A stretch of 37,718 bases of DNA, from the NCBI GenBank assembly GCA_947472765.1, contig CANJCM010000045.1, positions 1-37,718 on the forward strand. Direction: 5' to 3'. Shown here in pieces: positions 8,251-10,909 of this stretch (positions within the stretch are counted from its first letter, which is position 1; each line of letters begins with the position of its first letter). The notes beneath the pieces were generated by a model. The model did no database searches and had not been told where the DNA came from. It saw only the letters and a program-made list of their open reading frames with translations. This stretch comes from Opitutia bacterium. GTDB taxonomy: Bacteria > Verrucomicrobiota > Verrucomicrobiia > Opitutales > Opitutaceae. The position numbers were made by a program, and so were the translations under genes.

Positions 8251-8311
8251 GGTCGGCTTACGTCCGGCGTGGTGAACCCGCGCCGGGCAATTGGTGGCGG
8301 CTCGTGGGTGC

Positions 8312-8366
8312 TACCGGAATTCCGGTATTCGGGTCGCTTCCCAATTTTGGTCCCGGAATGCATTCC
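8312..8366. promoter_or_regulatory. Two perfect palindromes upstream of the response regulator
   Basis: A 16-bp perfect palindrome (TACCGGAATTCCGGTA) lies at 8312-8327 and a 12-bp perfect palindrome (GGAATGCATTCC) at 8355-8366. Both are in the space before the receiver-domain gene that starts at 8439. Their symmetry suits binding of a dimeric regulator. No promoter boxes can be named with confidence, so an operator role is only a suggestion. Confidence 0.4.
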
Positions 8367-8438
8367 TCAGCGCGGCTGCGTTGGCTTTCGGCCGACGAGG
8401 CCTGGCTTCCCTCGCAACCGCACTCTCTCCATCCACCG

Positions 8439-8846
8439 ATGAAAAATATTTCCGTCATTGTCGCGGATGACGTCGAAGGCATTCAGGACCTGGTCGGGCA
8501 CTGGCTCACGGCTGCTGGCCATGTCGTGATGTGCGTGTCCACCGGGCAGGCGGCGACCCAGCTGCTCAAGCACTGTCACTTCGACCTGGTGATCACGGAT
8601 ATCATCATGCCGGATGGTGACGGCCTCGAACTGATCCTCGAACTCAAGCAGGCGAGCCCGGAGGTGCGCATCCTCGCGATTTCCGGGGGCGGACGGCACA
8701 TGCAGGCGACGGACTGTCTGAAGATGGCAAAGAATCTCGGCGCCCATGCTGTGCTGCTGAAGCCGTTCAACCGTGATCAGCTTTCCGCCGCAGTGGAGCA
8801 GGTTTGTCCCCGCGATGAATCGGACGCCGTCGAGCCGCGGAACTAG
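8439..8846 (+). CDS. Stand-alone response regulator (CheY-like receiver)
   Basis: Single receiver domain of 135 residues. The acidic pair is Asp10/Asp11 (VIVADDVEG), the phosphoacceptor is Asp54 (LVITDIIMPDGDG), the conserved hydroxyl residue is Ser82 (LAISGGG) and the invariant lysine is Lys108 (VLLKPF). No output domain follows, so it should act by protein contact or within a phosphorelay. The frame is open upstream to 8304, but the ATG at 8439 puts the first beta strand directly at the N-terminus, as in CheY-like proteins. No histidine kinase gene is adjacent, so its partner is unknown. Confidence 0.88.
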   Translation: MKNISVIVADDVEGIQDLVGHWLTAAGHVVMCVSTGQAATQLLKHCHFDLVITDIIMPDGDGLELILELKQASPEVRILAISGGGRHMQATDCLKMAKNLGAHAVLLKPFNRDQLSAAVEQVCPRDESDAVEPRN

Positions 8847-8938: not shown

Positions 8939-9259
8939 TTTCTGGTCGGCGGCTCTTCCGTTTAAACAGATCCGGAGCCGCGCGAAAATTGGCGGGCCAG
9001 GCTGGCGCGCGGCGCCGCGGAATTTCTGCGATGGCGAATTCGTCGCCGCAATTTCGCTCGGGCGATTGCAGCGATCGTGCATCACGAAGCGCACATGACT
9101 TCGGATTTCGCGCGAATTTCCGGCTTGGTGTGGTCCGCAGTCATTTGCGGACAGTGATCTTCTGAGGTTTACATTTGGCCGCGGTGCGCGCCCATTTAGT
9201 CGTGCGGATGAGAACTGGTTCCCATTCGCACTCACAACCAAAGCAAAAAGGAAAATATC

Positions 9260-9325
9260 ATGGCTAAGAAAGCAGCAAAGAAAGCGGCTCCGAAGAAGAC
9301 GGCAGCGAAGAAGAAGAAGAAGTAA
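9260..9325 (+). CDS. 21-residue Lys/Ala-rich histone H1-tail-like peptide
   Basis: A very short gene: ATG plus 20 sense codons and TAA. The product has 12 Lys and 6 Ala, plus one Pro and one Thr, and begins MAKKAAKKAAPKK. A good Shine-Dalgarno site (AAAAGGA) sits about 7 bases upstream, which is rare in this window. The composition matches the basic tails of bacterial histone H1-like proteins, so nucleic-acid binding is the natural guess. A 16-bp hairpin and a strong Rho-independent terminator follow, so it looks like its own transcription unit. A low-complexity leader for a regulatory RNA is an alternative. Confidence 0.65.
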   Translation: MAKKAAKKAAPKKTAAKKKKK

Positions 9326-9340
9326 CCCCGCCTCGCCTCT

Positions 9341-9376
9341 CCTCCGCCGGTGGCTGATTTCAGTCATCGGTGGAGG
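9341..9376 (+). other. 16-bp hairpin in the 3' UTR of the Lys-rich peptide gene
   Basis: Positions 9341-9356 pair with 9361-9376 over 16 consecutive pairs, three of them G-U, around a four-base loop (ATTT). No T-run follows, so it is not a classical terminator. It lies between the peptide stop codon and the terminator at 9428-9458. Confidence 0.6.
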
Positions 9377-9427
9377 TGGGTGTAGCGGCCCGGCTGCTTC
9401 TGCCACTGGAGTCACTCCCAGATATTC

Positions 9428-9458
9428 GCGCGCCCCATTCGTGGGTCGCGCATTTTTT
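9428..9458 (+). terminator. Rho-independent terminator with TTCG tetraloop
   Basis: The stem 9428-9437/9442-9451 has nine pairs and one mismatch and closes on a TTCG loop. Six T residues follow at 9453-9458. The orientation suits transcripts from the Lys-rich peptide gene. It faces the convergent minus-strand VF530/DTW pair. Confidence 0.8.
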
Positions 9459-9508
9459 ATGTCCCGCGATCGACACCAGCCGATCGCACCGCCTCCGCGG
9501 GAGCGTGA

Positions 9509-9736
9509 TCAGATCGTCCGCTTCCTCGCCACGTACAGTGCCTCCACCTTCGCGCGGGCCCACGGGGTTTTCCGGAGGAAGGCCAGGCTCGACTTGATGC
9601 TGGGATCAAAGCGAAAGCAGCGCACGTCCACGCGATCCGCCATGCCGTCCCAGCCGAGCTCGGCGACGAGTTCGGTCAGGAGTTTTTCCAAGGTCACGCC
9701 GTGAAGTGGATCGCGCGAGGCGGGCGGGGTGGTCAT
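9509..9736 (-). CDS. VF530/DUF2132 family small protein
   Basis: A 75-residue protein matching the VF530 (DUF2132) family, a small helical fold annotated as a possible DNA-binding protein. The family pattern is clear: [17 protein letters not shown], then [24 protein letters not shown] and the terminal KVEALYV. Its start overlaps the stop of the upstream DTW gene by four bases (ATGA read on the minus strand), so the two are translationally coupled. Its function is unknown; coupling to an RNA-modifying enzyme hints at a nucleic-acid role. Confidence 0.88.
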
Positions 9737-10488: not shown

Positions 10489-10654
10489 CGACGTTGCGCG
10501 GCCTGCGCGCAGGTGGGAAGGGTGTAATTCCGCCGTGGAACTCGAGGCGAACGGTTAGTGCCCGGCGCGGCGCGCCTGGTGGGTGAAGACCGGAGGCGGG
10601 ACAAAATCTCCCCTCCGGAGGGAACCATCGACCGGCGTACGGGACCACTCGATC

Positions 10655-10909
10655 ATGAGTTTCCCGGGTAGTTTTACCTCCCGAATCATGGCGGCCATTT
10701 CGGCCCTGCCGATGGAACTGCGGGCCGAGGCCATCCATGCGATTCTCAGCGACATGCTGAAGGATCTCCCGGCCGAAAGCATCCTGCGGATGCGGGAAGA
10801 GGTCCGGCAGCAGTTGGATGACGATATTCCGATCATCCGTTCCGCGCTGGAACTGATCGAAGGCCAGCTCGCGCTGCGCGAAATCGCGGCCTCCGCGCAC
10901 TGGCGCTAG
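10655..10909 (+). CDS. Small helical hypothetical protein
   Basis: No family recognised. From the ATG at 10655 the product is 84 residues, acidic and probably all-helical (ISALPMELRAEAIHAILSD, then PAESILRMREEV and DDDIPIIRSALELIEG). A longer frame begins at 10583, but its extra 24 residues are Gly/Arg/Ser-rich and look non-coding. There is no signal peptide and no metal motif. It is divergent from the DTW gene and followed by an intergenic repeat. The regular amphipathic pattern argues for a real protein. Confidence 0.5.
   Translation: MSFPGSFTSRIMAAISALPMELRAEAIHAILSDMLKDLPAESILRMREEVRQQLDDDIPIIRSALELIEGQLALREIAASAHWR

What the first reader, a model, noticed from the sequence alone, without database searches (positions are those of the whole stretch)
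9260..9458. A 21-residue Lys/Ala peptide with its own Shine-Dalgarno box, 16-bp hairpin and terminator
The peptide has 12 Lys, like the basic tail of an H1-like protein, but no globular part. The AAAAGGA box is unusually good for this window, and the transcript would end at a strong TTCG-loop terminator after a 16-pair hairpin. This looks like a compact unit: either a minimal DNA-compacting peptide or a dual-function small RNA.
Basis: partly seen in the sequence, partly recalled or inferred. Interest (0 to 1): 0.52.

Follow-up and report, generated by a model that had tools for sequence, protein, structure and literature searches.

The report
Tiny lysine-alanine peptide gene
This looks like a real, self-contained gene for a 21-residue, almost pure lysine-alanine peptide, one of a family of very short histone-H1-tail-like peptides in related bacteria, which probably binds and compacts DNA or RNA by charge alone.

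Summary
ORF 9260-9325 encodes MAKKAAKKAAPKKTAAKKKKK: 21 aa, 11 Lys (not 12). It has a good Shine-Dalgarno box, a 16-bp 3' hairpin and a U-tailed terminator-like hairpin with one stem mismatch. An unreported hairpin lies in the 5' leader.

It is not a chance ORF. A pattern fixing only the first seven residues hit 27 places in 150 family genomes; 17 (the window's included) are Lys/Ala-only ORFs of 16-32 aa. Twelve of these converge on a DUF5069 gene. Beside that gene such peptides run from 15 to 113 aa between genomes. The 113-aa form passes Pfam's cut-off for HC2, the chlamydial H1-like protein; the 21-mer matches no family. Similar micro-ORFs occur in records from other phyla.

Best reading: a minimal disordered polycation, an H1 tail without a globular domain, that binds nucleic acid or another polyanion. 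The gene is well supported; translation and binding are inferred. A lysine attenuator is unlikely because the next gene is convergent. In the window's genus it was recognised in 4 of 27 genomes. The paper searches made found no description.

The parts
9202..9231 (+). predicted 5' leader hairpin upstream of the Shine-Dalgarno box
   Evidence: RNA fold of 9200-9465. The window's leader alone is not more stable than shuffles (26 of 100 as good); 9 of the 21 leaders tested beat at least 95 of 100 shuffles; modest covariation in one 7-sequence group.
9245..9252 (+). Shine-Dalgarno box AAAAAGGA, 7 nt before the ATG
   Evidence: sequence; GGA or GGAG near the same place in most units, not in L055, L057, L058
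9260..9325 (+). 21-codon ORF, MAKKAAKKAAPKKTAAKKKKK, Lys/Ala-only peptide
   Evidence: syntenic relative in G004; family members in other genera
9341..9376 (+). 16-bp hairpin in the 3' untranslated part (arms 9341-9356 and 9361-9376)
   Evidence: a 16-pair hairpin at the same place in G004, all pairs standard in both, 8 or 3 pairs changed on both sides depending on the register chosen
9428..9458 (+). terminator-like hairpin, TTCG loop, one stem mismatch, then A and six T
   Evidence: a matching hairpin with a T run in G004; not reported by the strict scan
9509..9736 (-). convergent downstream neighbour, VF530 DNA-binding family (PF09905); context only
   Evidence: of 24 VF530 loci read, a Lys/Ala peptide lies nearby in G000 and G004 only
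8304..8846 (+). upstream neighbour, response regulator receiver domain (PF00072); context only
   Evidence: a similar reading frame upstream of the unit in G004, compared by eye

Best explanation
A single-gene transcription unit makes a minimal, disordered, polycationic peptide: like the lysine/alanine tail of an H1-like (Hc2-like) protein, reduced to 21 residues with no folded domain. Shown here by sequence: the ORF recurs in relatives; its composition, MAKK-type start and lysine end are kept while lengths range from 15 to 113 aa; it stands alone, mostly with its own ribosome-binding site; a terminator-like hairpin follows; and the next gene is convergent wherever I established it. Inferred: that it is transcribed and translated; that the mRNA ends are protected by its hairpins; and that the peptide binds DNA, RNA or another polyanion through charge without sequence preference, helping to compact the nucleoid or neutralise polyanions. 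Loose constraint on order and length with strict constraint on composition is what a charge-only binder would show.
For: The closest relative has the same unit in the same place, peptide 86% identical. 17 of 27 matches to a pattern fixing the first 7 residues (26 of 150 family genomes; the reversed control pattern matched 3 times) are 16-32 aa Lys/Ala-only ORFs ending in KKK or KK, the window's own included. 12 of those 17 converge on DUF5069 with a gap of 64-349 nt. Of 70 DUF5069 loci read, 12 hold a complete Lys/Ala-only ORF of 15 to 113 aa and one more a form cut by the contig end; all 12 are convergent with it, gap 71-840 nt. The 113-aa form matches Pfam HC2 at 5.8e-14, 53.1 bits against a cut-off of 40. 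Similar micro-ORFs occur in records from other phyla, many followed by a terminator-like hairpin. Published support for charge-only binding: KPAA-repeat peptides bind DNA in vitro (stated in PMC9239181, passages); oligolysines of 16 or more Lys packed plasmid DNA well and K8 less stably (PMC4991294, abstract start in listing).
Against: No expression or binding data were available. In its own genus it was recognised in only 4 of 27 genomes by the patterns and DNA search used (G000, G003, G004, G023), and 57 of 70 DUF5069 loci show none under my filters, so it is dispensable or often unrecognisable. Synonymous excess is weak: in codons 8 onward, 8 synonymous against 6 non-synonymous codon changes summed over 7 non-independent pairs. 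The 21-mer, 32- and 36-aa forms match no Pfam family, and the 21-mer and 36-aa form no NCBIfam family. The HC2 profile also gives sub-cut-off matches in 2 of 14 control genomes, so weak matches to it mean little. With 11 Lys the peptide lies between the K8 and K16 peptides of the cited paper, so strong compaction is not assured. No promoter was found by the sigma-70 scan.
Confidence: 0.62

Rival explanations
1. A lysine attenuator: a leader peptide of 11 Lys codons whose translation senses charged tRNA-Lys and chooses between the 16-bp hairpin and the terminator, controlling a downstream gene.
For: The anatomy fits on paper: a short ORF rich in one amino acid, a hairpin, then a terminator-like hairpin.
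Against: The next gene is on the opposite strand in the window and G004 (VF530) and in 12 of the 17 pattern-found units (DUF5069); the downstream gene of four others (L053, L055, L057, L058) was not established. Lengths up to 113 aa are not leader-like.
Confidence: 0.04
2. Mainly a small RNA (or dual-function RNA): the hairpins are the active part and the ORF is secondary.
For: Strong fold, z = -4.8. The 16-bp hairpin is kept in G004 despite many base changes. In 7 of 21 units, the window's included, the terminator-like hairpin lies 51-106 nt after the stop, leaving room for other structure.
Against: In 13 of 21 units it starts 13-35 nt after the stop, without room for the extra hairpin, while the Lys/Ala ORF is what stays. 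No Rfam match at gathering score; weak sub-threshold hits only. The covariation of the leader hairpin is modest (56 of 500 shuffles reach the score).
Confidence: 0.12
3. A ribosome- or RNA-associated basic peptide, like very short basic ribosomal proteins, rather than a chromatin peptide.
For: Size and charge fit (by recall of such proteins); a leader hairpin could be an autoregulatory site. Not distinguishable from DNA binding by sequence.
Against: Length ranges from 15 to 113 aa and order is not kept, unlike a peptide that fits one ribosomal pocket. Recognised in 4 of 27 genomes of its genus.
Confidence: 0.13
4. A counter-ion for polyphosphate or RNA condensates, as the KPAA tail of AlgP affects polyphosphate granules.
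For: AlgP truncated of its Lys/Pro/Ala tail loses granule positioning, and polyphosphate forms condensates with polycationic peptides (PMC9239181, passages).
Against: I did not search for polyphosphate genes nearby; this is inference from composition only.
Confidence: 0.06
5. A chance or degenerate ORF in a low-complexity AAG stretch.
For: Low-complexity DNA can give such frames; 4 of 27 genus genomes have it. In the window's genome the bare KKK* tail pattern is no more frequent (11) than its reversed control (12).
Against: The same start, composition, lysine end and following hairpin recur in several genera and at a conserved place.
Confidence: 0.03

Closest known systems
Hc2 / HctB, histone H1-like nucleoprotein of Chlamydia (Pfam PF07382, HC2)
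   Same: Lysine-rich, tail-like, length-variable. A 113-aa Lys/Ala-only protein convergent with DUF5069 in G090 passes the Pfam cut-off. Hc2 varies from 165 to 237 aa (PMC2848022, abstract).
   Different: The window peptide is 21 aa, about a tenth of the size, and matches no family. A match between low-complexity proteins may reflect composition and not descent.
BpH1 and the Burkholderia/Bordetella Hc2-like proteins
   Same: Lysine-rich repeats and length variation (PMC2848022, section 10).
   Different: 182-206 aa in B. pertussis and 149-231 aa in Burkholderia (same section); the forms here go down to 15 aa.
AlgP and PhaF Lys/Pro/Ala tails of Pseudomonas
   Same: Predicted disordered K/P/A tail, fragments of which bind DNA (PMC9239181, passages).
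   Different: AlgP carries the tail behind a 124-aa N-terminal domain; here there is no other domain.
Protamines and oligolysine DNA-packing peptides
   Same: Very short, charge-driven, unstructured (recalled for protamines; oligolysine length effect from PMC4991294, abstract start).
   Different: Protamines are arginine-rich and eukaryotic (recalled); this one has lysine only and is bacterial.

Membership tests
HC2 / Hc2-like histone H1 family (PF07382; NCBIfam NF038052, NF038053) | Profile match above the curated cut-off | tested here: not met
   Window 21-mer: no match in Pfam (E up to 0.001) or NCBIfam (E up to 1). Of 7 longer members scanned, only the 113-aa one passes Pfam (53.1 against 40 bits); none of the 6 scanned passes NCBIfam.
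HC2 / Hc2-like histone H1 family (PF07382; NCBIfam NF038052, NF038053) | Lysine-rich composition with length variation | tested here: met
   0.43-0.62 Lys in the 17 pattern-found units; members convergent with DUF5069 are 15 to 113 aa. That lengths change by whole repeats was not tested.
HC2 / Hc2-like histone H1 family (PF07382; NCBIfam NF038052, NF038053) | DNA binding | not testable with these tools
   needs a binding assay
Amino-acid attenuator leader peptide | A co-directional gene downstream of the terminator | tested here: not met
   VF530 convergent in the window and G004; DUF5069 convergent in 12 of 17 units
Known small-RNA family | Rfam match at gathering score | tested here: not met
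   0 matches in the window at gathering score; only sub-threshold matches in 9100-9500

The most novel reading that the evidence does not exclude
Several bacterial phyla carry single-gene 'bacterial protamines': peptides of 15-40 aa made of almost nothing but lysine and alanine, most with their own ribosome-binding site and terminator. They would be among the smallest genome-compacting or polyanion-binding proteins, and their length would evolve freely because only net charge is selected. Whether these genes are annotated in public records was not checked.
Probability: 0.4. Interest if true: 0.7.

Novelty: new variant of a known kind. Interest (0 to 1): 0.52.

Why it matters
If the peptide is made and binds nucleic acid, it shows how little protein a chromatin-like function needs: about 11 lysines and no fold. 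The 21-mer matches nothing in Pfam or NCBIfam, and a search with it found only itself and one relative, so such genes are easy to miss and the set may be larger than seen here (inference; annotation of these genomes was not examined). The natural series from 15 to 113 aa at one chromosomal place is a ready-made experiment on how charge number and length set DNA compaction.

Tried and rejected
Synteny with VF530: rejected as a general feature; of 24 VF530 loci read (24 of 38 genomes), only G000 and G004 have a Lys/Ala peptide nearby.

Protein search with the 21-mer: too short; it found itself at E 0.004 and G004 at 0.06, nothing else in 57 genomes at E up to 1.

Genus survey: the tail pattern KKKK* matched in 19 of 27 genomes, but every place read is the tail of another frame except those in G000, G003 and G004. 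The start pattern MAK[ASTP]KK matched in 4 of 27: G003; G023 with a 21-aa Lys/Ala-only ORF that I had first overlooked and found on checking; G011 and G025 with other frames. Total 4 of 27. Forms with other starts and ends would be missed.

Own genome: patterns and the DNA search give only this unit; another K-rich 33-aa frame near one tail match (L073) is not of this kind.

Other DNA-search hits (8 genomes besides the own one): five lead to Lys/Ala micro-ORFs (G003, G004, G029, G035, G036); G033 is in the tail of a 212-aa protein; G020 is a different 32-aa basic protein that I recall as AURKAIP1/COX24-like; G038 looks like chance.

Pattern hits not of this kind: 10 of 27 (longer proteins, one SWIB-like by recall, and short frames of 37, 18 and 7 aa).

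Codon test: whole ORFs lean to third positions, but the search pattern fixed the first seven residues; from codon 8 the evidence is thin.

Leader hairpin: 9 of 21 leaders fold better than at least 95 of 100 shuffles, the window's does not; covariation in 7 sequences is modest.

HC2 profile over 38 relatives: no match in the window's genome or the 24 other genus genomes searched; 5 genomes outside the genus match (6 places), 1 above the cut-off; 2 of 14 control genomes match below it.

Terminator scan in my script: 13 of 21 units have the hairpin 13-35 nt after the stop, 7 of 21 at 51-106 nt; for L009 the script's pick is not convincing. Two of the 13 (L040, L041) have a weak T run.

Full report
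WHAT IS THERE. At 9260-9325 (+) is a 21-codon ORF, MAKKAAKKAAPKKTAAKKKKK, with 11 lysines and not 12. AAAAAGGA (9245-9252) lies 7 nt before the ATG. After the stop come a 16-pair hairpin (arms 9341-9356 and 9361-9376) and a terminator-like hairpin (9428-9451, TTCG loop, one mismatch) followed by A and six T. A further hairpin is predicted in the leader, 9202-9231. The region folds better than all 200 shuffles, z = -4.8. The strict scans found neither a sigma-70-type promoter nor this terminator. The upstream neighbour is a response-regulator gene; the downstream neighbour, on the opposite strand, is a VF530 gene, followed by a DTW-domain gene.

THE NEAREST RELATIVE. A DNA search of 57 relatives found a match in 9 genomes, the own one included. 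The best is G004, same genus: 82% identity over 207 bases, VF530 convergent downstream as in the window, a similar upstream frame by eye, and the peptide MAKKAAKKAAPKKSSAAKKKK (one search gives 86% identity). Over 20 aligned codons there are two synonymous codon changes and one non-synonymous, plus in-frame codon differences. A 16-pair hairpin is also in G004, all 16 pairs standard in both; depending on the register, 8 or 3 pairs changed on both sides and 4 or 7 on one side. With two sequences and an uncertain register this is suggestive only. Four more of the matched genomes (G003, G029, G035, G036) hold Lys/Ala-only ORFs of 15, 21, 36 and 35 aa.

THE FAMILY. A pattern spelling the first seven residues, MAKK[AT][ASTP]K, was run on 150 genomes of the same family (G000 included): 26 genomes and 27 places matched; the reversed control pattern matched 3 times. 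Of the 27, 17 are Lys/Ala-only ORFs of 16-32 aa, the window's own among them, ending in KKK or KK. Most have GGA or GGAG before the start; the three of one genus (L055, L057, L058) lack a clear box. In a set of 21 units (these, with duplicates removed, and those found by DNA search), a hairpin with a T-rich tail starts 13-35 nt after the stop in 13, and 51-106 nt after it in 7, the window and G004 among these; one (L009) is unclear. In 12 of the 17 the next gene downstream is a convergent DUF5069 gene, 64-349 nt away; the other five are the window's own, L053, L055, L057 and L058, with no DUF5069 in the stretch held. I then used that gene as an anchor: 89 of 100 family genomes have a match to it. 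I read 70 loci: 12 hold a complete Lys/Ala-only ORF and one more a form cut by the contig end; the other 57 show none under my filters. All 12 are convergent with DUF5069, at 71-840 nt. Their lengths are 15, 17, 20, 20, 21, 31, 34, 38, 56, 56, 89 and 113 aa. Four of them (17, 20, 20 and 21 aa) are the same units as in the pattern search. The window's peptide therefore lies near the short end of an elastic series.

RELATION TO KNOWN FAMILIES. The 113-aa member matches Pfam HC2 (PF07382) at 53.1 bits, above the cut-off of 40; the 89-, 56-, 56- and 38-aa members match below it, and the 36- and 32-aa members do not match. NCBIfam gives only sub-cut-off matches to the H1-like models. The 21-mer matches nothing. 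HC2 itself found nothing in the window's genome or the 24 other genus genomes searched, and it gives sub-cut-off matches in 2 of 14 control genomes. So the peptide resembles an Hc2/H1 tail, but I do not file it as an HC2 member; the similarity of low-complexity proteins may be convergence of composition.

WIDER SPREAD. Of 81 ORFs in these loci, 19 are at most 40 aa and over 80% K/A/P/V/T/S, two of them (L162, L214) cut by the end of the stretch. They include records titled Opitutaceae, Verrucomicrobiaceae, Planctomycetota and Phycisphaerae, Acidobacteria, Bdellovibrionaceae and Bacteroidetes. I looked at the surroundings of 20 of the 80 loci, chosen for such ORFs: many have a terminator-like hairpin soon after the stop; the Bacteroidetes ones lack a clear Shine-Dalgarno box. 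In some the frame is open far upstream (L150, L201, L221), so a longer protein is not excluded there. The other ORFs are mostly longer proteins with a lysine-rich start.

LEADER. In the group g59/g65 (7 sequences) a 12-pair leader hairpin is 97.6% paired, with two pairs changed on both sides, and slid controls pair 26-52%. Against shuffles the excess is modest (56 of 500 reach the score). 9 of 21 leaders fold better than at least 95 of 100 shuffles; the window's does not. I read it as a possible end-protecting or regulatory hairpin, unproven.

HOW IT PROBABLY WORKS. Shown: the ORF, its setting and its recurrence. Inferred: transcription, translation, disorder, and charge-only binding to DNA, RNA or polyphosphate. 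Published work supports the plausibility: Hc2 varies in length by lysine-rich repeats (PMC2848022, abstract and section 10); [quoted passage not shown] oligolysine with 16 or more lysines packs plasmid DNA well while K8 is less stable (PMC4991294, abstract start in the listing). With 11 lysines this peptide is borderline on that scale.

RIVALS. A lysine attenuator is unlikely: the downstream gene is convergent in the window, in G004 and in 12 of 17 units. A pure small RNA is unlikely because in 13 of 21 units there is no room for the extra hairpin while the ORF persists. A ribosomal or RNA-binding peptide cannot be excluded by sequence. A chance ORF is contradicted by the recurrence.

AGAINST MY READING. 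In the window's own genus the peptide was recognised in 4 of 27 genomes (G000, G003, G004, and G023 with MAKSKKATKAPAKKKKAAKKK). From codon 8 onward the substitution counts are 8 synonymous and 6 non-synonymous over 7 related pairs. There is no expression evidence.

NOVELTY. I found no description of such micropeptides in the searches made, of which I saw listings only and which cover open-licence PMC papers. H1-like lysine-rich proteins are well known; stand-alone forms this short look like a new variant of that kind.

Noticed in passing
L006 (1000 onward), L268, L275, L283, L302, L315, L316, L324, L326: A recurring protein with a PHRQISVR...SVGELLR motif (ribbon-helix-helix-like, by recall) ends in a few lysines in the window's genus but carries a long Lys/Ala tail in G033, so a Lys/Ala tail may grow or shrink on a folded domain too.
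   Followed up: no
L152 939-992 and 1183-1263: In one Acidobacteria contig two Lys/Ala micro-ORFs (17 and 26 aa) lie in tandem, each followed by its own terminator-like hairpin.
   Followed up: no
L294 1501 onward (G023): A same-genus genome has a 21-aa Lys/Ala-only ORF with a different start, MAKSKK; its neighbours were not examined.
   Followed up: partly
window 10583-10909: A 108-aa ORF with no Pfam or NCBIfam match; a similar frame lies downstream of VF530 in G004 by eye (L003, about 2320-2540).
   Followed up: partly
L045, L160, L202, L204, L222, L224: Lys/Ala-rich starts on small proteins with a shared PLPRT domain (SWIB-like, by recall), in several phyla.
   Followed up: no
L061 226-1311: A 361-aa gene upstream of the peptide with no Pfam match; a similar 361-aa frame lies upstream in L050 265-1350, another genus.
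   Followed up: no
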